A stretch of 47,916 nt of DNA from a virus, in the IMG/VR virus record IMGVR_UViG_3300027969_005288, positions 1 to 47,916 of that record. One strand, 5' to 3'. This document shows positions 1,568 through 46,374 of this stretch, one piece after another. The position numbers were made by a program, and so were the translations under genes. Within the stretch, counting starts at the first letter, position 1, and each line of letters starts with the position of its first letter. Under the pieces are notes generated by a model that did not search any database, was not told where the DNA came from, and was given only the letters and a program-made list of their open reading frames with translations.

Positions 1568-3634
1568 CTAGTTTGATTGCATTATTATCCAATTTGTATT
1601 ATCACTTACAAGAGTTACCCAACTACCAGCAACTGCTGGCAAAATGCTAGTACTAGGAGATCCACCTATTAATGGTACAATATTTGATGATGCTGAAATT
1701 ACTAGTTGATTTGTTATAGTTTTAATATGATATTCCATACCTGAATATGATGCAGGATTTGGTAAAGTTATAGTTATAGTTCCACTGCCATTACAAATAT
1801 ACCAACTATTTGTTGTTGTAATTGTAGTATTGATTGATATAATCTCTACATTGCCTTTCTGAATAGGCTTTATAAATTTTATAATACCATCAAAAGTTTT
1901 ATCCCCACTAAATGTTTGAGCACTTGTTGATACAATACCTGGTATATTTAATGCAGCATTATCTATACTTATAGAAGGAGTACTACTATTATTACTTACA
2001 TTTATAGGTGAAACGCCTGATACATTAGTTACAGTACCAATTCCACTTGAACCTGAAGTTCCACTTGAACCTGAAGTACCACTTGAACCTGAAGTTCCAC
2101 TTGAACCTGAAGTTCCATCTATACCTGAAGTACCACTTGAACCTGAAGTTCCACTTGAACCATCTATTCCACTAGTACCACTTGAACCTGAAGTTCCACT
2201 TGAACCTGAAGTACCACTTGAACCTGAAGTTCCACTTGAACCTGAAGTACCGCTTGAACCTGAAGTTCCATCACCTGAAGTACCGCTTGAACCTGAAGTT
2301 CCATCTATACCTGAAGTACCACTTGAACCTGAAGTTCCATCTATACCTGAAGTTCCACTTGAACCATCTATTCCACTAGTACCACTTGAACCTGAAGTTC
2401 CACTTGAACCTGAAGTACCACTTGAACCTGAAGTACCACTTGAACCTGAAGTTCCACTTGAACCTGAAGTACCGCTTGAACCTGAAGTTCCATCTATACC
2501 TGAAGTACCACTTGAACCTGAAGTTCCATCTATACCTGAAGTACCACTTGAACCATCTATTCCACTAGTACCGCTTGAACCTGAAGTACCATCACCTGAA
2601 GTACCACTTGAACCTGAAGTTCCATTTGTTCCACTGGTGCCATTAGTACCACTAGTGCCATTAGTACCACTTGAACCTGAAGTACCTGCATTACCAACTA
2701 AAGATATAAGCCATGCACTATATGAACCTGATCCTTCATTGTTAATTGAATTTAATTGTAATTGCCCATTTGCTGGATTGTAATAAGTAATTTCACATTG
2801 GAAACTATTAAATATATCATAAATTATGATAACGTTTTGTCCTACAATATATGCAGCTCCTGCGTTTACTGTCATATTAACAATAGTAGGATGTGTTACT
2901 GGGATGCTAATAGTAGATGTTGATGTAGTATTATAAATACTTCCACTTATACCACTTGATCCGCTTGTTCCTGTTGTCCCTGAAGTTCCTGATGAACCAT
3001 TTATCCCTGATGTTCCTGCTGAACCTGAAGATCCTGATATTCCACTAGTACCGCTTGTTACATTAGGTCCAATTGGACCTTGAGGTCCTATAAAACCTTG
3101 AGGTCCTGAAGTTCCTGATGAACCACTGATTCCACTGGTGCCACTAGTACCAGAAGTGCCTGCAAGACCGCTAGTTCCACTCGTACCAGATGAACCATTT
3201 AACCCACTGCTGCCTGAAGTGCCAGAAGTACCACTTCCACTAGTTCCACTACTTCCTGCACTGCCTGTAACTCCTAATAAACCTTGTGCGCCTTGCGGTC
3301 CATTTATTCCTTGTGGACCTCTTAGTCCTTGTGGACCTGATGTACCAGAAGTTCCATTAGTACCACTAGTTCCAGCAGTGCCACTAGTACCACTTGTAAG
3401 ACCAGGACCAACAGGCCCTTGTGCACCTTGCGGCCCTGCAGATCCGCCTGCAGTTCCAGAAGTCCAACTAGTTGAAGCAGCATCCCATATTGGCACTTTA
3501 CCAGTACTAAGACCTTTATTTAAAAGATCTGCTGTGTTTATGTTTGAATCTATAATATCTGAAAAGTCTTGAGAACTAGGTTTAGACCCTGTTTCAAATC
3601 TAGTTTTAAGATAATCGGTAGTTTTAATAGGCAT
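1568..3634 (-). CDS. Collagen-like, Ser/Thr-Gly-rich virion fibre protein
   Basis: This 688-residue protein begins with a non-repetitive N-terminal region of about 60 residues, likely the attachment domain. Short GPQGPQG collagen blocks follow, then long GTSGSSG runs, where every third residue is glycine. A non-repetitive globular insert sits at about residues 233-310 before a second TSG-rich stalk. The C-terminal 130 residues form a Thr/Ile-rich, beta-looking head domain. Gly-X-Y repeats form triple helices in known phage collagen-like fibres, so a trimeric tail or capsid fibre is likely. The stalk is almost entirely Ser/Thr in X and Y and lies next to glycosyltransferase genes, making it a plausible glycan acceptor. 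The plus-strand open frames here are repeat shadows. Confidence 0.8.
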   Translation of the reverse strand: MPIKTTDYLKTRFETGSKPSSQDFSDIIDSNINTADLLNKGLSTGKVPIWDAASTSWTSGTAGGSAGPQGAQGPVGPGLTSGTSGTAGTSGTNGTSGTSGPQGLRGPQGINGPQGAQGLLGVTGSAGSSGTSGSGTSGTSGSSGLNGSSGTSGTSGLAGTSGTSGTSGISGSSGTSGPQGFIGPQGPIGPNVTSGTSGISGSSGSAGTSGINGSSGTSGTTGTSGSSGISGSIYNTTSTSTISIPVTHPTIVNMTVNAGAAYIVGQNVIIIYDIFNSFQCEITYYNPANGQLQLNSINNEGSGSYSAWLISLVGNAGTSGSSGTNGTSGTNGTSGTNGTSGSSGTSGDGTSGSSGTSGIDGSSGTSGIDGTSGSSGTSGIDGTSGSSGTSGSSGTSGSSGTSGSSGTSGSSGTSGSSGTSGIDGSSGTSGIDGTSGSSGTSGIDGTSGSSGTSGDGTSGSSGTSGSSGTSGSSGTSGSSGTSGSSGTSGIDGSSGTSGSSGTSGIDGTSGSSGTSGSSGTSGSSGTSGSSGIGTVTNVSGVSPINVSNNSSTPSISIDNAALNIPGIVSTSAQTFSGDKTFDGIIKFIKPIQKGNVEIISINTTITTTNSWYICNGSGTITITLPNPASYSGMEYHIKTITNQLVISASSNIVPLIGGSPSTSILPAVAGSWVTLVSDNTNWIIMQSN
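2040..2692. repeat. Collagen-type nucleotide repeats (TSG/SSG codons)
   Basis: An 18-bp unit, ccacttgaacctgaagtt with accx variants, is repeated dozens of times, interrupted by longer units that read GIDGTSG or GIDGSSG. Blocks of several units are themselves duplicated, for example around 2160-2390 and 2360-2570. This points to unequal recombination changing stalk length. Related but more varied repeats occupy 2942-3462. Confidence 0.9.
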
Positions 3635-25824: not shown

Positions 25825-27185
25825 AATTTAACATTAGATTCTTTATGTTTTTGATCTATTATTGAAAATCCGGCAGGTTCATACACTAAAGGAGTTTTGG
25901 TTCTAAAAATAGGTACTCTTTTATCATAATTCCAATAAAGCCAAATATCCCAAGCATGCCACTTTTCAGTATTGAGTTTATATTGAATCTGTTCTCTTTC
26001 TTTTTTTGTAATCATATAACAGTGAGCTGATATAAAATGATCTATTTTTATATAATCTCCTACTTCAACAGAAGTATTTTCTATAGATGCGGTAGAGCCT
26101 ACACCAAATCCAACATTTCCAAATGTAATCATAGAAGCATCATTTAATTCTGCAAATTCGCATGCACGATTAAATTTAAATGCCATTTCAGCTGGAGTTT
26201 TATTAAATATTACATCCCCTTCTACTATTATTAATGCATCTAAATCAGTACTAAATTCTTCAAGAATTGCTCTTTTGTGTGCAAGATATGCTCCATAATG
26301 CCCATAAGATAAATGTACACCTTCTATAGATTTTTCTGTTAAATATGAAGGATCTGCACATGTATCAACGGGTAGTAGAGTTTTATTTGGTATACTAAAC
26401 TGTTGTGTATATGATTGAATATATTGTTTAATTCCATCAAAACACTGCATTGATTGATTTTGTTTATCTGCATATAAACCATCAAGTGGAGTTAAAAGTA
26501 AATGTACTATTTTTATTTTTTTAATAGAAATATCAAATAGTCTATTTTTTCTAATTTCAAAAAATCTATTATCATCATTATTATCTATATAATTTTTTTG
26601 ATATATAGGATCTTCTAAATTAAGTTCAAGATGTTCATGCTTAATAATAACATCACTAAAATATTTTTGTTTTCCTAATAAATTAGCAAGAATCATAAAA
26701 TCATTATCACACCATTGAGATTTATAACCAGGATGATATACGTATTTAAATCTGTCATAGTATTTTTTACCTAAAATGCATTGGGTATTAAGTTGATCTC
26801 CCCAAAATCCATCATTGTAAAATAAAACACCATCAGTGTCTGGGTAATTTTCTTTCATATCTGCAATAATTCTTTCATCCCAACCCAAAACACAAGGTAC
26901 TGTATCATCTGCTGCAATAATAATTATATCCCAATTATCCGTATATTCATTAATATCTCTATTTATAGCATCTATTTTACTAATACTTTCACCGATAACT
27001 ACAGTAGTATTTGGATAATATTTAATTTTTGATATAGTATTAGAATTACATAAAATACTATCAGATTCATCAATACTAATTAAATATGAAACACTATTAC
27101 TTGTTGATAAATCATGAAATTTATTAAAAGTAGAAAAAAATAAATCATATCTGCCTCTTGTTGGAAATTTAACTAAAAGTTTCAT
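25821..27185 (-). CDS. Two-domain glycosyltransferase (GT-A-like plus GT25-like)
   Basis: Residues 1-200 look like a GT-A nucleotide-diphospho-sugar domain, with KFPTRGRYDLF at the start, SIDESDS as a donor-binding acidic segment and IIIIAADDTVPCVLGWDE in the place of the DxD region. From about residue 225 a second domain resembles the GT25 family of LPS transferases: LSYGHYGAYLAHKRAILEE, LIIVEGDVIF with a D-x-acidic-type metal site, and DHFISAHCYMITKKE. Two active sites in one chain suggest sequential sugar additions. The gene overlaps the topoisomerase medium-subunit stop by 1 base. Whether it acts on DNA, virion or host glycan is not clear. Confidence 0.7.
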   Translation of the reverse strand: MKLLVKFPTRGRYDLFFSTFNKFHDLSTSNSVSYLISIDESDSILCNSNTISKIKYYPNTTVVIGESISKIDAINRDINEYTDNWDIIIIAADDTVPCVLGWDERIIADMKENYPDTDGVLFYNDGFWGDQLNTQCILGKKYYDRFKYVYHPGYKSQWCDNDFMILANLLGKQKYFSDVIIKHEHLELNLEDPIYQKNYIDNNDDNRFFEIRKNRLFDISIKKIKIVHLLLTPLDGLYADKQNQSMQCFDGIKQYIQSYTQQFSIPNKTLLPVDTCADPSYLTEKSIEGVHLSYGHYGAYLAHKRAILEEFSTDLDALIIVEGDVIFNKTPAEMAFKFNRACEFAELNDASMITFGNVGFGVGSTASIENTSVEVGDYIKIDHFISAHCYMITKKEREQIQYKLNTEKWHAWDIWLYWNYDKRVPIFRTKTPLVYEPAGFSIIDQKHKESNVKL

Positions 27186-28540
27186 TAATTTAGTTTTGAT
27201 TTTAATTCATTTAAATCTTTACGATACATTTCTTTAATGTTTGCATTTTCTATATCAGTAAGTTCTATATTTTTTATATCTACTTTTTCCAACAAATCAT
27301 TATATTTTTCAAGAGTAAGCGAATATATTGCCATATTTAAAAGATAATTATAAGAATTATCAACTTGATCAAATTTCTGAGAAGTTAATGTTTCTATAAT
27401 TTTATCCCTAGAAACTTTATTTATTTCAATCTTTTTTTCAATAATACCTCTAATAAATCTAGCTCTGTTAGAAAGAATCATCAATTCTTTCTGTAGCTTA
27501 TTTATCATGTAATCTTTCCTTTTTTGGTAGTATTCTAATCTAAAATTTACAAAATACCTAACTATCTCATCCGCTGTATTAAATATCTTTAGTTTTCCAA
27601 ATTCATCTAACACTGTAAGGTTTTCGCTTTCTCTTTCATACATTTTTAATGTATCTTCAAGTCTGCCTTTTTCTATAAGATCAGCTAATATTTGTCTTGA
27701 AAATTTTAAAGTATAATTAACACGGCCTGCTGAATTATCTTCATAGCTTGATAGAATTCCTTTTTCAATCAAAGTATTTAAATGTATTTCATATTTTTCA
27801 TAAGTTTGGCTTGGTGGTATTTCAGTAATTTCTACAGTTGAAGTATTTTTAACTTCAAATAAACCTTTATATAACCAACTTTTTTCACTATCTGCAATTC
27901 TTTCATAAGTACCTGCAAAATGCTTAAGCCACGGCTTTAGTTCTTTTAATTTCTTTTTTTCATTTAATACATCTAAACATGCATTAATAAGATCTAAAGG
28001 ATTTCTATTAAGAACATTAGTAGCAAATCCGACAGCAATACCTGAACTACCATTTAAAAGAATAGTAGGTATAATTGGTAAGAAGAATTTAGGTTCTATT
28101 TCCTCACCTTCTTCAAATTGAGAATTAACGAGTTCAAAATCTTTATATAAAAGTTTAAAATTATTATTTAATTTTACACCAATATAACGAGAAGCTCCAG
28201 CTTCGGGGCTTCTAAGTGAACCAAACTGCCCAATACCTTGAAAAAGTGGCATACTATTTTTAAAATCTTGAGCCATACCTACAATAGCGCCATCTAATGA
28301 CGAGCTACCATGATGATAAAAGGTAGTAGATGCTACAACACCAGCTAATTGAAAAATTTTCATAGGTTTTTCATTACCTGTTTTCCATACGTTATTTGCC
28401 GCATAGATAACCTTTCTCTGGGTTGGTTTAAAGCCATCAATAACTGATGGAATTGCTCTATTTTCAACAACATATTTAGCGTAATCAAGATATTCAGTAT
28501 CAAAAAAATCTTGTACGTCTCTTTTATTTTCAATTGTCAT
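27185..28540 (-). CDS. DNA topoisomerase II medium subunit (T4 gp52/GyrA-ParC-like)
   Basis: The 451 residues (T4 gp52 has 442) match the breakage-reunion domain of GyrA/ParC. DYAKYVVENRAIPSVIDGFK begins the domain and TQRKVIYA follows. FYHHGSSSLDGAIVGMAQDF precedes the catalytic Arg118-Tyr119 in GASRYIGV. GSSGIAVGFATNVLNRNP and a C-terminal coiled region complete the core; the beta-propeller of bacterial GyrA is absent, as in T4. With the large subunit encoded just upstream it should form the phage type II topoisomerase. Its ATG shares a base with the stop of the large-subunit C-part. Confidence 0.93.
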   Translation of the reverse strand: MTIENKRDVQDFFDTEYLDYAKYVVENRAIPSVIDGFKPTQRKVIYAANNVWKTGNEKPMKIFQLAGVVASTTFYHHGSSSLDGAIVGMAQDFKNSMPLFQGIGQFGSLRSPEAGASRYIGVKLNNNFKLLYKDFELVNSQFEEGEEIEPKFFLPIIPTILLNGSSGIAVGFATNVLNRNPLDLINACLDVLNEKKKLKELKPWLKHFAGTYERIADSEKSWLYKGLFEVKNTSTVEITEIPPSQTYEKYEIHLNTLIEKGILSSYEDNSAGRVNYTLKFSRQILADLIEKGRLEDTLKMYERESENLTVLDEFGKLKIFNTADEIVRYFVNFRLEYYQKRKDYMINKLQKELMILSNRARFIRGIIEKKIEINKVSRDKIIETLTSQKFDQVDNSYNYLLNMAIYSLTLEKYNDLLEKVDIKNIELTDIENANIKEMYRKDLNELKSKLN

Positions 28541-29355
28541 TAGAATACTGATTTTATGCTATTGCCTTTTATTGATTTTTTTTCTACTTTTAAAACTTCT
28601 TCAGTTTCAACTTCTTTAGTTTCAACATCTTCAGTTTCAGTTTCTTTAAGACCTAATATTTTTATCTTTCTAGGTGTAGAATCACCTGCAAACCAAGTTT
28701 CTAAAGTACCTTTAAAATTCTTACCTTTTGATAAAATAAAATAATTAGGATTCTGAATAATTTCTTTATATTCATCATTTTCAAGTGCTGCTAGACCTTT
28801 TTTATATTCTATAGACCATTCATCAGGTGACTTCTGGATCTCTCTCCACGTATTATATTCTTTATTTGTATAGAACCATTTCTTATCTTTTCCTTTTTTA
28901 CATACGACCAACGGTGTTACTACTCTGCACATTATATTTTTTTCAAATAGTTCTGGCCAATATTTACCAAAAAAATTAATTAAAAGGCCTGCAATAGAAT
29001 CACCATCAGGATCCGCGTCTGAATAAATAAAAATTTTGCCATATCTAATATCAGTAGGTGGCTCTCCCATTTTTAATCCAATAGATGCAAGAAGACTTTT
29101 AACTTCTTGATTTTGAATAACTTTAGTATTAGGCAGTTCCATAACATTAATAAATTTACCTCTAAGCGGAAATGCACCTTGTATCATAGGATCTCGATGT
29201 TGGCGAAAAGCCGAAGATGCTGAATTATGAGAAACTATACCATTAGATAATGTAAAACTCTTATCGCCTTCTATAGTTAGATCTACTGAATTTTGGTATT
29301 GCGATTCAATTGATATTTCATCAATATCTACCAATTCTATAAAATTTTCTATCAT
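28540..29355 (-). CDS. DNA topoisomerase II large subunit, C-terminal part, preceded by C-intein
   Basis: Residues 1-44 are the C-terminal half of a split intein: NSVDLTIEGDKSF is block F-like, and NGIVSHN is block G ending in His-Asn. Serine 45 is the first extein residue. After it comes SASSAFRQHRDPMIQG and the TOPRIM metal site IYSDADPDGDSIAGLLINFF, as in GyrB and T4 gp39/gp60. Splicing to the upstream half would rebuild EGDSASS. The C-extein is 227 residues; with the 419-residue N-extein the mature subunit would be 646 residues. An acidic tail (TETEDVETKEVETEEV) ends the protein. It overlaps the endonuclease gene stop by 4 bases. Confidence 0.9.
   Translation of the reverse strand: MIENFIELVDIDEISIESQYQNSVDLTIEGDKSFTLSNGIVSHNSASSAFRQHRDPMIQGAFPLRGKFINVMELPNTKVIQNQEVKSLLASIGLKMGEPPTDIRYGKIFIYSDADPDGDSIAGLLINFFGKYWPELFEKNIMCRVVTPLVVCKKGKDKKWFYTNKEYNTWREIQKSPDEWSIEYKKGLAALENDEYKEIIQNPNYFILSKGKNFKGTLETWFAGDSTPRKIKILGLKETETEDVETKEVETEEVLKVEKKSIKGNSIKSVF
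29224..29355 (-). other. Split intein, C-terminal half (topoisomerase)
   Basis: This encodes 44 residues with intein blocks F and G and the terminal His-Asn dipeptide directly before the extein serine. The length is close to the 36-44 residues of classical C-inteins such as DnaE-type split inteins. Confidence 0.88.
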
Positions 29356-30749
29356 ACATTGTGGTTTATAAAATTTATAATTTTGTTAATTATTTCTGAA
29401 TCTACATCAGTATCCCAAACTTCAAAATATAAAAAATCATCAGCAATTGCTCTTTTTCTTTTTAAAATATTTTTTTCTAAAACTGTTTCATAAGATTCTT
29501 TAGAAAAAGCATGTCTCCATTTTAATTTATCTTCATTTAACATATGCGGATGTGGATGAAAAGCAGATCCATTGAATTCTATTATTAATTTTTTTTTATT
29601 TTTATAAAAAATAACAAAATCATAAAAATAATACCTACTATTTTCATTATCATATAAGCCGTACTCTCTATTTAGATCTCCAAAATAAATTTTATCAATA
29701 GCATCAATGTTAATAATTTTTAAAAATTGATATATTATATTAGTAGACCATTTTGAATAGCCTGCTCTTCTATTGCTGCATATTTTTATCCATCTTTGCG
29801 TACCTTCATATTCACCATATTTTTCTATTTGATTTTTTAAAGTTATTTTACATTTATCTTTACGTTTATTTATAATGTCATTAGCTTCGCTAATTGTAAT
29901 ATTATATAATTTTATTAGCTTATAAGGATCAAATATTGTAAATTTTTGCGATTTTTCTTCTAATGAAAGTTTTTCAATATTTTTTTTAAATGTATTACTT
30001 CTTTTTTCTATATAGTTTTGATATAATTTTAATCCTTCTTCATTTCCATATCTTTTTATAAAACTAACTAATCCTTGTTTAGTTTTTTCTATTCTAATTA
30101 AAAAATCATCATTACTATCAAATAGATGTCTTGACATACTATTTTTAGATTTACAATAATTTTCAAATTTAATTCTACCTTCTATTTGACCATGTTTCTT
30201 AATGTAGCCGTCTAGTGATCTAGAATAGTTTTGTTTGTTTAATGTATTTTTATATTTTAAAGCACCTTGTGTTTCGCCATATCTTTTAATAAAGTATGAT
30301 AAATTTCTTGATTGAGACTCTTTATATTCAGTATCATTTTTAAAATTCTCTCTATAAAATGAACTTTTATTGTTATTTTTTATATAAATAAGAGCTTCAT
30401 CGTAAGTAATATCATGCATTATAGAAATGAATTCAGCACTATTTGAATTCATTTTTTTACCAGGGCAATTACTATTAAAACCATAACAATATTGGTAGCC
30501 TTTGTATTTTTTTATTTCTTCTACTGATATTATCTGTAATGATTCATTAAATTTAATTTTAAATCTTATTGGATTTTTACATATTTTACATCTATTTACT
30601 TTAAAATTATTATTTTCTAGAACATTAACCACTTTATCTAATCCATATTTTTTAATTATTTTAGTAGTTATCAACTGTTCAATATTAATTATTGATTTTA
30701 TTGAATTTATTCGATAAGTTAAACCATACACATTAATATTATACTGCAT
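29352..30749 (-). CDS. Freestanding homing-type endonuclease inside the split topoisomerase gene
   Basis: Of 465 residues, the N-terminal 100 include a four-cysteine zinc site (CKIC near 54 and two Cys near 88 and 95). The middle contains four copies of a short DNA-binding-like module: FIKRYGETQGALKYKN, YIKKHGQIEGRIKFEN, FIKRYGNEEGLKLYQN and QIEKYGEYEGTQRW. The C-terminus has a VSR/EDxHD-like nuclease core, YDFVIFYKNKKKLIIEFNGS with nearby FHPHPH, and ends VWDTDVDSEIINKIINF. The same family sits in the split terminase locus. It is not fused to either intein half: it starts 19 bases after the N-part stop and overlaps the C-part start by 4. Homing into intein-free topoisomerase genes is inferred. 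Confidence 0.8.
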   Translation of the reverse strand: MQYNINVYGLTYRINSIKSIINIEQLITTKIIKKYGLDKVVNVLENNNFKVNRCKICKNPIRFKIKFNESLQIISVEEIKKYKGYQYCYGFNSNCPGKKMNSNSAEFISIMHDITYDEALIYIKNNNKSSFYRENFKNDTEYKESQSRNLSYFIKRYGETQGALKYKNTLNKQNYSRSLDGYIKKHGQIEGRIKFENYCKSKNSMSRHLFDSNDDFLIRIEKTKQGLVSFIKRYGNEEGLKLYQNYIEKRSNTFKKNIEKLSLEEKSQKFTIFDPYKLIKLYNITISEANDIINKRKDKCKITLKNQIEKYGEYEGTQRWIKICSNRRAGYSKWSTNIIYQFLKIINIDAIDKIYFGDLNREYGLYDNENSRYYFYDFVIFYKNKKKLIIEFNGSAFHPHPHMLNEDKLKWRHAFSKESYETVLEKNILKRKRAIADDFLYFEVWDTDVDSEIINKIINFINHNV

Positions 30750-30768
30750 TTTTGATTTTTTGAAGGTA

Positions 30769-32511
30769 CTAATTATATATTATCAAATCAGTGATTTTTA
30801 TATCATTAGCTTCTTTTAAATCAAAAATTTCTTCATCTGTTGAATATATTGCCATTTTGTGATTTAATGTAGATACTATTCTTGAATCATCAGTAATAAA
30901 TATAATCTCATTTTTTTCTCTTTTTATTTTTTTAATGATTGACGCCTTAGTAATAGTTTGCATTTTATTTCTAACTAACTTATGAATAGTTAAATTTAAA
31001 TCTTTGCATTTTACCCATATAAAAGAATCTTTTTCTGTATCATATACATAGAATCTATGTTCTGCGCTTGCTTTAATACTGCCATATTTAGTTTTTATTT
31101 CTAAAAGTTTAGAAATTTTAGAAGTTTTAGCTATAATTTTTCTAATTCTATTTTCATGAGTTAATACATGTTGTCCTATTTCGGCATTTTTAATTTCAAT
31201 ATCATTTTTACCATTTTCATCAAATACTGTTATTAATGTAGATTCATGTAAACAATCACCTTCAAAGATAGCTAGTGAGCATTTTTCCCTATTGTCTTTA
31301 GATTTTGCATCAATTAATTTAATAATTTTTGTTTTATCTAAGAATTTATTTAATGCTCTTAACTGCTTTCTTTCATCTGCTAATTTTTTTTCTTGAATCC
31401 AATCTAGAAGTTGTTTAATAATTTCAGAGTTAAAAACTAATTTTAAGATATTTTCTGAAACTTCATGATAAGATCCAAAATCTTTAGGTTCTGTAATTAA
31501 TTTTTCTTTTGTTTGAGAAGAAAATCCTGAATTGACAATAGAAGCTTCTACAAATAAAAACATGTGATTTTTAAGCTCAGATGGTTTTACTTCTACTTTA
31601 TATTTTTTCTTTATTTTTTCTCTTAGCCATTGAGTAATTTGATGTAATACATATTCAACATGAGTTCCACCATCTTTAGTTTCTACTGAATTAACAAATG
31701 ATACTTGCTGAAATCCATCCTCTGATAATCCAATACCAATTTTCCATCTATCACTTTCTTCATAAAAAACATCATTAATATAATATTTAGTATAATCCTT
31801 AAAAGATTTAAAAATAAAAGATTCTCCATTACAGCCTACTTGCAATTTAGGATTGCATGCAGCTGCATCTATTACTCTTTTTTTCATTAGAGCAAAATGA
31901 ATTTGATCTATTGAAGTCATACTAAATCTTTCTAAATCAGGGATATATGATATTTCAGTATAACCTTTAGATCCTTCACCTATTTTAGCATTTTCTCTTT
32001 CATGCATATTATTGGTAAAAACTTGTTCAAAAGTCTTTTTACCGTCACATGTTTTAATTTTAAATTCTTTAGAAAAAATATTAGTTAATGTTGCACCTAC
32101 TCCATTAGTACCTGCTACTAATCGTTCTTCCGAATCATCAAAATTAGATCCTGTTTTTAAACTAGAAAAAAGTAATTCGGGTATCCATTCATCATATTCT
32201 TTATGTTTTTGAACAGGAATACCTCCATTATCCCATATAGTAATTATTCCTTTTTCTATATCAATAGTAACTTCAATTTTATTGAGTTTTGGATTTCTTT
32301 TATGTTCATCTACAGAATTAGAAATAATTTCATCAAAGATTTTTAAAAAAGCTGGATTATAAGTAACTTGAACTTTTTCAAATTGATTTTTACTATCCAA
32401 CAAGAAAACTTCAGAATTATGCATTTTAATAGAACCTACATACATGCCTGGGCGTGTAAGACAATGTTCTACGTCTGATAATCTTTTATACTTCTGTTCT
32501 ACAGATTTCAT
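30769..32511 (-). CDS. DNA topoisomerase II large subunit, N-terminal part, followed by N-intein
   Basis: Residues 1-419 are the GHKL ATPase and transducer domains of GyrB/T4 gp39: LTRPGMYVGS, the Asn-containing IISNSVDEHKRN, TIWDNGGIPV, and the ATP-lid VAGTNGVGATLTNIF. The extein ends LAIFEGD, the first half of the TOPRIM EGDS motif. Cysteine 420 begins a 161-residue N-intein (CLHESTLITVF). The chain then stops, so it cannot work alone unless trans-splicing joins it to the part encoded at 28540-29355. A TGAAAC-class promoter stands 17 bases upstream of the start. An SSR-like ATTAAAATG start context lacks a Shine-Dalgarno. Confidence 0.92.
   Translation of the reverse strand: MKSVEQKYKRLSDVEHCLTRPGMYVGSIKMHNSEVFLLDSKNQFEKVQVTYNPAFLKIFDEIISNSVDEHKRNPKLNKIEVTIDIEKGIITIWDNGGIPVQKHKEYDEWIPELLFSSLKTGSNFDDSEERLVAGTNGVGATLTNIFSKEFKIKTCDGKKTFEQVFTNNMHERENAKIGEGSKGYTEISYIPDLERFSMTSIDQIHFALMKKRVIDAAACNPKLQVGCNGESFIFKSFKDYTKYYINDVFYEESDRWKIGIGLSEDGFQQVSFVNSVETKDGGTHVEYVLHQITQWLREKIKKKYKVEVKPSELKNHMFLFVEASIVNSGFSSQTKEKLITEPKDFGSYHEVSENILKLVFNSEIIKQLLDWIQEKKLADERKQLRALNKFLDKTKIIKLIDAKSKDNREKCSLAIFEGDCLHESTLITVFDENGKNDIEIKNAEIGQHVLTHENRIRKIIAKTSKISKLLEIKTKYGSIKASAEHRFYVYDTEKDSFIWVKCKDLNLTIHKLVRNKMQTITKASIIKKIKREKNEIIFITDDSRIVSTLNHKMAIYSTDEEIFDLKEANDIKITDLIIYN
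30772..31254 (-). other. Split intein, N-terminal half (topoisomerase)
   Basis: This encodes 161 residues. Block A is CLHESTLITVF. Block B is KASAEHRFYVY (S-x-x-H). A second, similar hairpin follows about 60 residues later (VSTLNHKMAIYSTDEE, T-x-x-H), so the block B region appears duplicated. Classical N-inteins are about 100-125 residues; the excess equals the extra hairpin. Confidence 0.85.
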
Positions 32512-42839: not shown

Positions 42840-44717
42840 TTAAATAAGATCATATATGTCAAAATACATAGCACCTTCATCTTTTGATTTTAATAAAATT
42901 TCATCCATCACTTTCTGTACATTAGGATCTACTAAATCAAATTTTTCTTCTACAAAATCAGAAAAATCAAGCGTATGAAAAAATTCAGTTGCATTTATAC
43001 TTGACATTACTAAATCATCACATCCTAATTGCCCTTGATATTTACCGCTAGATGATTTACCAAAACTAATACACTCTTCAATAGTATTTTTATTATAAAG
43101 CCGTATTTTGCCCATACTTATATATTTTTTAAAATTTTGACAAAATATTGTTTTATTATCTGATTTTAATTTTAGCCCAAAACTTGAAGTTTTAGCATCA
43201 TTTCGATGTTTAAATTTTACAACCATTTCTTCATCAAAATCATTTCTAGATGGAAATATAGTTTGTAATCTTCTAATTAATTCTGAACCAAACATATTCC
43301 ATTCTATTATAAGTTTTACATTTTCATTATTGAAAATATCAATAGATATTGTATATAAAATTTTACTAAAATCTTCTATACTATGAGTATTGCTCTGAAA
43401 AATAGCAATTTGTTTTAAACCGAAAAAGTCTATAAAACTACCTGGTGATTTTACTTTTTTAATATCACTTATATTCATTGGCTCGATAGAAAAAATATTA
43501 ATTACTGAATAGTCACCACCACCACCTTCTGCTATATCTACAGAAAATGCCCAATAATTATTTAAATTTTCTATTTGAGAAATATCAAAATCAGGATCCC
43601 ATACAAGGGCACTATAATTAATTTCTAAATCATCAAGCTCGATAAATTCATGATGTATAAAATCTTTTTGTTTTTTTTGTAATTTTTTTATAGATTCAGG
43701 GCCTAATAAAAGATTAGAACTTGCAATAAATTGATTTCCATATTGTCTATTAAATGCTTCCTCTGATCCTAAATTAGAAATTTCTCTATACATCCATGCC
43801 TCATCTCGGCCTACTACTTGCCACCAATCTACCCTATATGGGCGGTATTCATTTTTATTGTGAACTGCATTTTTATAAATATCATAGAATTTATTAAAGC
43901 CATTAGGAGTACTAGTAATAATAACTCTAGATATTTTAGATGAAGATATAGTAGGATATACGTTTTCATAAAAACTATCTAAAAAACTTGAATGTATATG
44001 AGCAAATTCGTCCATAAATAGTAAATGAATAGTAAAACCGATTGCAGCTTTTTTACTAGTATTTAAACCAATAATACGACAACCATTATCAAATTTCATA
44101 TTAAATACATCATTTTTAAGAACACCTGGCTTCATAAAAAAAGGTAAATTATCTAAAATAACTTTTGCTTTATCTATGATTTCTCTAGTAGTTGAACCTT
44201 TATTAGAAAGAACAAGAGCATTTCTATCAAAATTAAAAAGAATATACCATGCTATATAAATAGATGAGCATATCGTATTATGAGAAAGTATGTCATTTGA
44301 ATAGAAACGATGACCAGGATGATTCACAGTCACATCATACATTTCGATATGCAAAGAAGTTTTTTCTAATTTAACAATTTTTTCTGGACCATCTTTAGTC
44401 ATAATAAAAGTCCCTTCTTTACAATTTTTTAAATAAACTTCATCTATTTTCTCATTAAATAGAATATGTGTATCAGCACCTTCTAATTTTTTACCAGACA
44501 GAGTTTCTATTTTCCAAACATCAAAAGGTTTAGTTTTATGAATATGTGTAATAGGTTGATAACCTGAATCAGTTTTTATTGAAAGTCCTTTAATATCTAA
44601 AGTTTCCTGTATTTTATCTAAAAGATTTGATTGATCTAGAAAAGACTTGTCTTTATTTTCAATCTTTTCTATTAGTTGAATCAAAAAAAGAATAATATAT
44701 CTTAAACCTATACGCAT
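42840..44717 (-). CDS. Terminase large subunit, C-terminal part, preceded by long C-intein
   Basis: Residues 1-147 are the C-intein: a hydrophobic opening helix (GLRYIILFLIQLIEKI), a block B-like GADTHILF, block F MYDVTVNHPGHRFY and block G NDILSHN. Thr148 is the first extein residue, and TICSSIYIAWYILFNF continues the ATPase domain. Walker B is HLLFMDEFAHIH and motif III is ITSTPNGF. The C-terminal nuclease domain has SVDIAEGGGDYSVINIF and later acidic residues. The 478-residue C-extein plus the 129-residue N-extein gives 607, nearly the 610 of T4 gp17. It packages DNA at the portal. It overlaps the endonuclease gene by 10 bases. Confidence 0.92.
   Translation of the reverse strand: MRIGLRYIILFLIQLIEKIENKDKSFLDQSNLLDKIQETLDIKGLSIKTDSGYQPITHIHKTKPFDVWKIETLSGKKLEGADTHILFNEKIDEVYLKNCKEGTFIMTKDGPEKIVKLEKTSLHIEMYDVTVNHPGHRFYSNDILSHNTICSSIYIAWYILFNFDRNALVLSNKGSTTREIIDKAKVILDNLPFFMKPGVLKNDVFNMKFDNGCRIIGLNTSKKAAIGFTIHLLFMDEFAHIHSSFLDSFYENVYPTISSSKISRVIITSTPNGFNKFYDIYKNAVHNKNEYRPYRVDWWQVVGRDEAWMYREISNLGSEEAFNRQYGNQFIASSNLLLGPESIKKLQKKQKDFIHHEFIELDDLEINYSALVWDPDFDISQIENLNNYWAFSVDIAEGGGGDYSVINIFSIEPMNISDIKKVKSPGSFIDFFGLKQIAIFQSNTHSIEDFSKILYTISIDIFNNENVKLIIEWNMFGSELIRRLQTIFPSRNDFDEEMVVKFKHRNDAKTSSFGLKLKSDNKTIFCQNFKKYISMGKIRLYNKNTIEECISFGKSSSGKYQGQLGCDDLVMSSINATEFFHTLDFSDFVEEKFDLVDPNVQKVMDEILLKSKDEGAMYFDIYDLI
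44277..44717 (-). other. Split intein, C-terminal half (terminase), unusually long
   Basis: This encodes 147 residues, including the block B histidine that normally belongs to the N-half, so the split point is early. It starts with a hydrophobic, basic-ended helix not seen in classical C-inteins and ends in the canonical Ser-His-Asn before threonine. Confidence 0.87.
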
Positions 44718-45829
44718 AAAAATTCTTTACATTTGTTTATTATTTCCTCTGGGTTTTTATACCAGTCCGATTCCCATATTACTAAGACTTGGTAATCATG
44801 TTCTTCTGCTTTTTCTCTTTTAATCCTGTCATAATCCCATATTTCTTGCGCTGTCATCTTTTTTACTTTATGAAAATAATCAGATTTAAATTTTTGAGGA
44901 TTGCAATGCCAAAAATCTCCATTGAATTCAATGATCTTTTTAGATTTAATAAAAACCAAATCATATTTATATGCTCTTTTTAGTTCTTTATCCCGGATGA
45001 ATTTTTCGTTGGATCCTCTTTTTACGTCATCGGTAAAAATAGAACATATTACATCAAAGAATTTTTCTGAAACATTACTTCTACCTCTTCCGATCCATTG
45101 ATCTTCATTAAAGACTTTAGCTTTCCAATTCTTTCGTCTCTCTTCCCATTTTTCTTTTCCTAATTCTTCACCGTATTTATTTTGAAAAAAAGAAAGATCT
45201 CGAGTTTGTAGTTTTGCAATTTCAGCAATAGCTTCTTTGCGAGTCATGCCTTTATCAATCCAGTGCTCAACCTGATTCCAAGTTTTTCTATCTTTTAAAA
45301 AAATATTAACTCTTTCAGAAACCATTTTTGCATATTCATCTTCATGTCTATTCGGAAACCTTTTTCGATAAAACTCTATCGAGAAAGGGCTTGCTTCCTT
45401 TCTCTTCTGTTCAGAAGTTTTAGTATGAGACATTGGATTTTTTTGCCCTTTAATTTTATCCGAAAACATTTTTTTATACTTTTCTTCCTTCATGTGCTTT
45501 CCACCATTAATAGTAGTGGCTTCTCTATCAGAAGAACAATAGAGAGGTGTGTTTGGAAATTCAGCTTTGTACTCGTCAAGAGTTCTATGTGGATGCATAG
45601 ATTTAAACCATTTGCCATAGATTCTCGGGGTAACGTAACTATTCCAAAGATCTATCACATAGTCTACACCTTCAACGCCTTTTAGAAGAGATTCCTGTCT
45701 TTTCTTAAAGTTAAAATCAGATGAACATTTAATAGAACAGAATTTTGAAGTTGCAACTCCAGCCTCGTATCCAGATTTGCAACAAAGACAATTTTTTTGA
45801 AAAGGCGTCCTCTTTATATAATTTTTCAT
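44708..45829 (-). CDS. Freestanding homing-type endonuclease inside the split terminase gene
   Basis: The 373 residues include an N-terminal four-cysteine zinc finger (CLCC near 14-17 and CSIKC near 31-35) and a NUMOD3-like GQKNPMSHTKTSEQKRKEA stretch. One module, FFQNKYGEELGKEKWEE, resembles the repeats of the topoisomerase-locus endonuclease. The C-terminal nuclease core reads YKYDLVFIKSKKIIEFNGDF with a following WHCNP. The end, LVIWESDWYKNPEEIINKCK, parallels VWDTDVDSEIINKI in the other enzyme. It overlaps the N-part stop by 4 bases and the C-part start by 10, so all three genes are translationally linked. It probably spreads the intein by cutting intein-free terminase genes. Confidence 0.8.
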   Translation of the reverse strand: MKNYIKRTPFQKNCLCCKSGYEAGVATSKFCSIKCSSDFNFKKRQESLLKGVEGVDYVIDLWNSYVTPRIYGKWFKSMHPHRTLDEYKAEFPNTPLYCSSDREATTINGGKHMKEEKYKKMFSDKIKGQKNPMSHTKTSEQKRKEASPFSIEFYRKRFPNRHEDEYAKMVSERVNIFLKDRKTWNQVEHWIDKGMTRKEAIAEIAKLQTRDLSFFQNKYGEELGKEKWEERRKNWKAKVFNEDQWIGRGRSNVSEKFFDVICSIFTDDVKRGSNEKFIRDKELKRAYKYDLVFIKSKKIIEFNGDFWHCNPQKFKSDYFHKVKKMTAQEIWDYDRIKREKAEEHDYQVLVIWESDWYKNPEEIINKCKEFLCV

Positions 45830-46374
45830 GCTAATTTAGATAATATTCTATAGAGAATATATTTTATTGTTTCTAAAAAAGTTAATTTTCTTTTCTGTTT
45901 TAGGTATCTAATATAAAGTTCACCGATTGTGACTTTTTCAATAACAGAATCTTTTTCAATTTTTAAGAAAGTTTGTGGAGAAAGACATTTTCCTATTTGC
46001 CTGCTGGCTAAACAGATAGAAAATCTATTAGCTCTAAAATGATCAAGCATATCAAGTTGATAATCTCTAAGCTTAATAGTACTAAGACCTTCATCTGTCA
46101 TTACAGTGCAATAATTATTAGCAAAATAACAGACATCATTTGCACATTTTTTTAATTCTTCAAATTCATGTTTAGTGTAATCAAATAAAATATTACCTTT
46201 TCTTAAGGTAGGATTGCCTTCATAAAAAGGTAGTCCTCCTTTTGGTTTATATCCATCATCTATAGAACTTAATAATTTTTCAATTTTTTCTGTACTCCAT
46301 GATACTCTATCTTCAGAATTTTCAGTACGAGGTACAACAATTTCTACTTCACTATTTTTATATTGTACTGCCAT
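45826..46374 (-). CDS. Terminase large subunit, N-terminal part, followed by short N-intein
   Basis: Residues 1-129 are the N-terminus of a gp17-like terminase: FEELKKCANDVCYFANNYC, then IKLRDYQLDMLDHFRANRFS (adenine-motif region), and SICLASRQIGK, the Walker A motif up to its lysine. Cys130 starts a 53-residue N-intein, CLSPQTFLKIEKDSVIEKV, which ends in a hydrophobic helix (TFLETIKYILYRILSKLA). The chain stops before the Walker A Thr, so ATP binding needs trans-splicing with the part at 42840-44717, which would restore GKT. The start shares a base with the stop of the small subunit gene. Confidence 0.92.
   Translation of the reverse strand: MAVQYKNSEVEIVVPRTENSEDRVSWSTEKIEKLLSSIDDGYKPKGGLPFYEGNPTLRKGNILFDYTKHEFEELKKCANDVCYFANNYCTVMTDEGLSTIKLRDYQLDMLDHFRANRFSICLASRQIGKCLSPQTFLKIEKDSVIEKVTIGELYIRYLKQKRKLTFLETIKYILYRILSKLA
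45829..45987 (-). other. Split intein, N-terminal half (terminase), unusually short
   Basis: This encodes 53 residues with block A only (CLSPQTFLKI, then VTIGELYIRY). The remaining 25 residues are a Lys/Arg-rich turn and an amphipathic helix. Block B is on the other chain. This recalls the early-split terminase intein AceL-TerL described from environmental DNA, whose N-half is about 25 residues. Confidence 0.87.

What the first reader, a model, noticed from the sequence alone, without database searches (positions are those of the whole stretch)
28540..32511. Topoisomerase II large subunit split at the TOPRIM EGDS motif by a second split intein
The N-part ends LAIFEGD then Cys of block A; the C-part has SHN followed by SASSAFRQHRDP. 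Splicing restores EGDSASS and a 646-residue subunit. The break falls inside the metal-binding catalytic motif, so neither half can be active. This is the second gene in the same genome with this design.
Basis: partly seen in the sequence, partly recalled or inferred. Interest (0 to 1): 0.85.

Follow-up and report, generated by a model that had tools for sequence, protein, structure and literature searches.

The report
Phage topoisomerase rejoined by split intein
In this phage the large subunit of a DNA-untangling enzyme is encoded in two separate pieces, broken exactly inside its active site, each carrying half of a self-splicing intein that should stitch the protein back together, and a gene for a DNA-cutting enzyme that probably spreads the whole element lies between them; at least 16 other phage lineages carry the same arrangement at the same site.

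Summary
Confirmed. On the minus strand the T4-type topoisomerase II large-subunit gene is interrupted, to the base, between EGD and S of the TOPRIM motif: N part (419 aa extein + 161 aa IntN), a 465-aa homing-endonuclease-like ORF, then C part (44 aa IntC + 227 aa extein). Joining gives 646 aa. The closest relatives (about 85% identical protein) have the same gene uninterrupted. A profile scan found the same insertion in 17 distinct phage lineages, including a 462-kb huge phage; Cys1, the block-B His and SHN|Ser are invariant. In one relative the two halves lie about 79 kb apart with no nuclease gene, so there only protein trans-splicing (or non-covalent assembly) can make the subunit. Intein and extein histories disagree, consistent with homing. 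This is the known 'fractured gene' type of split intein, at a site for which I found no published report. Ssp-GyrB-type inteins sit four residues further on, the T4 39/60 break about 55. Unexpected extras: IntN carries a duplicated block-B module, and the endonuclease keeps its N-terminal part while its nuclease end varies (Vsr-like or HNH-like). Splicing itself has not been tested.

The parts
31255..32511 (-). N-extein: topoisomerase II large subunit residues 1-419 (ATPase/transducer domains and start of TOPRIM), ending ...LAIFEGD
   Evidence: phrog_543 E 6e-126; DNA_gyraseB and HATPase_c; junction coordinates; base-exact against empty alleles L004/L005
30772..31254 (-). IntN, 161 aa, starts Cys1 (CLHEST), block B SAEH with His66; stop codon at 30769-30771
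   Evidence: Pfam Intein_splicing 4e-5; Cys1 and His66 invariant in 14 lineages; AlphaFold pLDDT 88
30970..31119 (-). first block-B module of IntN (residues 46-95), with the catalytic-type His
30772..30921 (-). second, duplicated block-B-like module of IntN (residues 112-161), His not conserved
   Evidence: hhalign module 1 versus module 2: probability 97.6, P 3e-12 over 50 columns; block A region versus module 2 not significant
29352..30749 (-). homing-endonuclease-like ORF, 465 aa: N-terminal Cys-rich part (C54,C57,C88,C95) and a Vsr/DUF559-type C-terminal nuclease region (YFYDFVI..LIIEFNGSAFHP)
   Evidence: phrog_22677 1e-14; relatives annotated VSR endonuclease in Aes508 and PTm1; DUF559 in 2 of 12 homologues; N-terminal part conserved at the same site in other lineages
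29224..29355 (-). IntC, 44 aa, with its own ATG; ends NGIVSHN; start overlaps the end of the nuclease ORF
   Evidence: NCBIfam intein_Cterm 21.6 bits, cut-off 15.6; SHN invariant in 17 lineages
28540..29223 (-). C-extein: topoisomerase II large subunit residues 420-646, starting Ser+1 (SASSAFRQHRDP), carries the DADPDGD metal motif
   Evidence: phrog_543 E 1e-59, TOPRIM_C and Toprim
27185..28540 (-). context: topoisomerase II medium subunit (gp52 type), uninterrupted here; split by another intein in relatives L025, L103 and L206
   Evidence: DNA_topoisoIV 1.5e-87; relatives
42840..46374 (-). second split-intein gene: TerL N part 45826-46374 (...SRQIGK|53 aa IntN), nuclease ORF 44708-45829, C part 42840-44717 (147 aa IntC|TICSS)

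Best explanation
A class-1 split intein inserted in the TOPRIM EGD|S motif of a T4-type phage topoisomerase II large subunit, in 'fractured gene' form. The two halves are translated separately (the C part probably coupled to the end of the nuclease ORF), IntN and IntC associate into one Hint fold, Cys1 and Ser+1 carry out the acyl shifts, Asn44 of IntC cyclises, and the exteins are joined as ...FEGD-SASS..., giving a 646-residue subunit in which catalytic Glu417 and the DADPDGD residues are on one chain. The ORF between the halves is a homing endonuclease that cuts uninterrupted alleles and so spreads the whole insert between phages. Shown here: anatomy, exact site, invariant catalytic residues, homology to inteins, empty alleles, patchy distribution and intein/extein discordance. 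Inferred: that splicing occurs, that it is needed for activity, and that the nuclease is active on this site.
For: Base-exact insertion against empty alleles of 84-86% identical protein and against L051 at 86-91% identical DNA for L065. Seventeen occupied lineages, Cys1 and block-B His 14/14, SHN 17/17, Ser+1 wherever read. Intein_splicing 5e-7 over residues 9-141 of the joined IntN+IntC; joined profile finds gp41-1 split intein 6qaz at 9e-6, then DnaX, Npu DnaE and RadA inteins; intein_Cterm above cut-off. In L212's 158-kb contig the N part lies at 104-106 kb and the C part at about 25 kb with no nuclease ORF beside them, so RNA splicing or read-through of one short transcript cannot be the route there. 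The tree needs at least 7 gains/losses. L198 and L200: inteins 77% and 89% identical, exteins 45% and 59%. No Rfam intron.
Against: No splicing, proteomic or nuclease data exist. IntN is unusually long (161 aa against about 94-123 for the canonical split inteins listed in PMC11766414) because of an extra module of unknown role. Pfam Intein_splicing is below its gathering score. Block F lacks its usual His (as, from memory, does the active AceL-TerL intein). Asp at -1 is, from general intein knowledge, apt to favour side cleavage. T4 shows a broken TOPRIM can function without ligation.
Confidence: 0.92

Rival explanations
1. The two parts assemble non-covalently like T4 gp39/gp60, and the intein halves are inactive remnants.
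For: T4 topoisomerase works with its large subunit in two pieces broken inside TOPRIM (PMC2988022).
Against: The splicing residues are invariant across 17 lineages, including those where the nuclease has decayed or gone (L103, L200, L204, L212). IntN and IntC are under clear constraint, pN/pS about 0.07-0.37 (pS saturated). 205 residues would hang at the catalytic Glu.
Confidence: 0.05
2. A group I or II intron with an intron-borne nuclease restores the gene at RNA level.
For: Introns of this kind are common in phages and split terL and other genes in other huge phages (PMC12363816).
Against: No Rfam match at E up to 1. The insert is in frame with the N-extein for 161 codons of intein, and IntC has its own start. 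In L212 the halves are 79 kb apart.
Confidence: 0.01
3. Misassembly or a pseudogene joined two unrelated fragments.
For: The window is a metagenomic fragment.
Against: The same arrangement in a second contig from another record and in 16 other lineages; frames open and catalytic motifs kept.
Confidence: 0.01

Closest known systems
'Fractured gene' split inteins of phages (Dassa et al. 2009, doi 10.1093/nar/gkp095, not readable here; AceL NrdHF with a GIY-YIG nuclease, PMC7891396; gp41-1, PDB 6qaz)
   Same: Gene broken at a conserved site, N-extein-IntN, stand-alone nuclease ORF, IntC-C-extein; gp41-1 is the best profile match
   Different: Other host protein and site; IntN longer by a duplicated block-B module; both Vsr-like and HNH-like nuclease ends at one site; some members without nuclease and one with the halves 79 kb apart
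Cellular GyrB inteins of the Ssp GyrB type
   Same: TOPRIM motif of a type II topoisomerase ATPase subunit, Cys1 and Ser+1
   Different: Inserted at EGDSAGG|SAKQGR, four residues downstream
T4 gene 39 / mobA / gene 60
   Same: Same protein, TOPRIM split into two genes with a nuclease gene between
   Different: Break about 55 residues downstream, no intein, parts stay separate (PMC2988022)
Mycobacteriophage TOPRIM inteins (PMC5050341)
   Same: Intein at the active site of a TOPRIM protein of phages
   Different: In a putative primase/topoisomerase protein; the paper's text has no mention of split inteins
AceL-TerL atypical split intein (PMC11766414)
   Same: TerL of the same window is split near the N end of the intein, as AceL-TerL is
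   Different: TerL IntN here is 53 aa, AceL-TerL 25 aa; the topoisomerase intein is not of this atypical kind

Membership tests
Class 1 split intein | Cys/Ser at position 1 and block-B TxxH-type motif | tested here: met
   C1 and H66 invariant in 14 lineages, S/T at -3 from the His in most
Class 1 split intein | C-terminal (H)N followed by Cys/Ser/Thr | tested here: met
   SHN in 17/17, Ser+1; intein_Cterm above cut-off
Class 1 split intein | sequence homology to Hint/intein domains | tested here: met
   profile hit to gp41-1 9e-6 and other inteins; Intein_splicing 5e-7 but below gathering score; fold matches of IntN alone led by Hint proteins but weak, E 0.02
Class 1 split intein | trans-splicing activity | not testable with these tools
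   needs co-expression
Fractured-gene arrangement | IntN and IntC on separate ORFs with a stand-alone nuclease ORF between | tested here: met
   13 of 17 lineages have a full nuclease-like ORF, 2 a remnant, 2 none
Fractured-gene arrangement | uninterrupted homologues in relatives | tested here: met
   69 distinct empty alleles
Vsr/EDxHD homing endonuclease family | profile match to the nuclease domain | tested here: inconclusive
   no Pfam hit for the window ORF; DUF559 in 2 of 12 homologues, MTES_1575 in 1; relatives annotated VSR; whole-chain fold search uninformative
T4-type topoisomerase II large subunit | full-length profile coverage by the two parts | tested here: met
   phrog_543 23-446 and 445-657
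GyrB intein site (Ssp GyrB type) | same insertion point | tested here: not met
   cellular site is EGDSAGG|SAK
T4 39/60 split | same break and no intein | tested here: not met
Group I/II intron | intron RNA structure in the insert | tested here: not met
   no Rfam match

The most novel reading that the evidence does not exclude
A distinct lineage of split inteins dedicated to phage type II topoisomerase, whose IntN carries a duplicated block-B module that serves as a docking or control element for assembly, paired with a modular endonuclease whose targeting part stays fixed on the EGD|S site while different nuclease domains are exchanged; in some phages it has lost the nuclease and become a fixed, dispersed two-gene enzyme.
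Probability: 0.35. Interest if true: 0.7.

Novelty: new variant of a known kind. Interest (0 to 1): 0.56.

Why it matters
It adds a new host protein and a new insertion point to the fractured-gene split inteins, with enough independent lineages (17) to ask how such elements move, lose their nuclease and become fixed. The dispersed case shows one end state of that path. It also puts protein ligation and plain non-covalent assembly side by side for the same TOPRIM domain (this family versus T4 39/60), so the need for ligation can be tested directly. Practically it gives a set of new natural split inteins with Ser+1 and an unusual extra module.

Tried and rejected
Idea that D to M/L at -1 in occupied genes (L025, L103) is adaptation to splicing: rejected, 14 of 69 empty alleles have M or L too. 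Intron: rejected. Single-sequence PDB searches of IntN and of the nuclease: nothing relevant. Fold search of the nuclease model (pLDDT 74): uninformative. Fold search of IntN: Hint proteins lead but E only 0.02. HNH assignment of the nuclease end in L025/L205/L207 rests on motif reading only; Pfam found nothing. Dassa 2009, the defining paper, is not held, so I cannot exclude that a topoisomerase case is listed there; searches for intein with topoisomerase, TOPRIM or huge phage found no report of this site.

Full report
Observation. The finding is accurate to the residue. On the minus strand the N part (30769-32511, 580 aa) reads ...KCSLAIFEGD and then the intein start CLHESTLITV; the C part (28540-29355, 271 aa) reads MIENFIEL...LSNGIVSHN and then SASSAFRQHRDP. 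The exteins are 419 and 227 aa, together 646. The phage topoisomerase II large-subunit profile is tiled by the two parts, positions 23-446 and 445-657. The finding omits a 465-aa ORF (29352-30749) between the halves. It starts 19 bases after the N part's stop codon, and its own end overlaps the IntC start. The insert is AT-richer (21-26% G+C) than the exteins (27-30%).

Not an artefact. A second contig (IMGVR 3300009184_000203) holds the same arrangement at 100% protein identity. The closest relatives, L004 and L005 (84-86% identical), have the gene uninterrupted and their frame joins exactly where the two exteins meet. In another lineage, occupied L065 and empty L051 are 86-91% identical in DNA and differ by an insert at the same base.

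A family at one site. Scanning topoisomerase loci gave 69 distinct empty alleles and occupied ones; a scan with the IntC profile raised the occupied set to 17 distinct lineages: window, L025 (462-kb huge phage LR756500), L065, L103, L195, L196, L197, L198, L200, L201, L202, L204, L205, L207, L211, L212 and L213. Exteins range down to 27% identity. Cys1 and the block-B His are invariant in the 14 IntN aligned, and SHN in all 17 IntC. The joined IntN+IntC profile finds the gp41-1 split intein (PDB 6qaz) at E 9e-6, then DnaX, Npu DnaE and RadA inteins. Pfam Intein_splicing gives 5e-7 on the joined window sequence, below its gathering score; NCBIfam intein_Cterm passes its cut-off.

Why trans-splicing. 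In L212's 158-kb contig the N part is at 104-106 kb and the C part near 25 kb, with no nuclease ORF beside either. RNA splicing or read-through of one gene cannot serve there. In L204 the halves are adjacent with no nuclease ORF; in L103 and L200 it is a remnant. Yet the splicing residues are kept, and IntN and IntC change mostly at silent sites (pN/pS about 0.07-0.37; pS is saturated, so this is a rough measure). Large records with the split gene (462, 244, 201, 165, 158 kb) hold one C part each, and the 462-, 244- and 158-kb records, searched also with the N part, hold one N part each; no uninterrupted copy was seen. No known intron RNA is present in the window's insert.

Mobility. On a tree of exteins the occupied state needs at least 7 changes, and the window's nearest rows are empty. 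L198 and L200 have inteins 77% (IntN) and 89% (IntC) identical, but exteins only 45% and 59% identical, as expected for horizontal transfer. The nuclease ORFs share an N-terminal part (four Cys and a NNKSPFY/QSRS region) but end either in a Vsr/DUF559-like region (window, L065, L195-L198, L201, L202, L213) or an HNH-like one (L025, L205, L207; motif reading only). I infer that the N-terminal part recognises the site and that nuclease ends have been exchanged. Cleavage is untested.

A feature of its own. IntN is some 40-60 residues longer than other canonical split inteins because it contains a second copy of the block-B module. Profile comparison of the two modules gives probability 97.6 and P 3e-12 over 50 columns, while the block A region does not match. 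The His is conserved only in the first copy. The predicted structure (pLDDT 88) shows the same strand order twice. Its role is unknown.

What it is not. Cellular GyrB inteins of the Ssp GyrB type are inserted at EGDSAGG|SAKQGR, four residues downstream. The T4 39/60 break lies about 55 residues downstream with no intein (PMC2988022). T4 also warns that a broken TOPRIM can work without ligation, so the finding's 'neither half can be active' is likely true of each half alone but does not prove that ligation is required.

The second gene. TerL in the same window is also broken, at Walker A GK|T, with a related nuclease ORF (30% identical to the topoisomerase one in the shared region), but its intein is split after 53 residues, more like the atypical AceL-TerL than the usual place.

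Literature. The arrangement is the 'fractured gene' kind (named in PMC7891396 for AceL NrdHF; Dassa 2009 not held). Text searches for intein with topoisomerase, TOPRIM or huge phages found no report of this site. Mycobacteriophage TOPRIM proteins carry inteins at the active site (PMC5050341). So: a new variant of a known kind, well supported, with splicing still to be shown.

Noticed in passing
L025 8628-11386; L103 8849-11662; L206 6622-8368: The medium subunit (gp52 type) is also split by an intein, at YHHGD|S, with a Vsr-like nuclease ORF between; both topoisomerase subunits of LR756500 are fractured.
   Followed up: partly
L213 3497-4873: The topoisomerase large subunit is in three pieces: a second split intein sits in the DAD|CDG metal motif, without a nuclease ORF.
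   Followed up: partly
L212 (24-25 kb and 104-106 kb of the 158-kb contig): Halves of the split gene lie about 79 kb apart; the C part has in addition a T4 39/60-like break downstream with a similar tail (NENDEIKIDNKW).
   Followed up: partly
L195 1462-3591; L202 4998-7148: The C part of the large subunit runs on in one frame into the medium subunit, a fused large-C/medium protein of about 710 aa.
   Followed up: no
L030 3653-7087: Topoisomerase large subunit broken downstream of EGDS near the T4 39/60 point, with a Vsr-like nuclease ORF between the parts and no clear intein.
   Followed up: no
L031 4663-7132: A RecA/UvsX-like gene split by an intein with a Vsr-like nuclease ORF between.
   Followed up: no
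window 42840-46374: TerL is split by an atypical intein (53 + 147 aa) with its own nuclease ORF at 44708-45829.
   Followed up: partly
window 1568-3634: 688-aa protein made largely of GTSGTSG-type repeats, probably a collagen-like tail or fibre protein.
   Followed up: no
L065 versus L051: Flanks within 100-200 bases of the insert are less alike (82-83%) than further out (about 91%), which could be a co-conversion tract.
   Followed up: no
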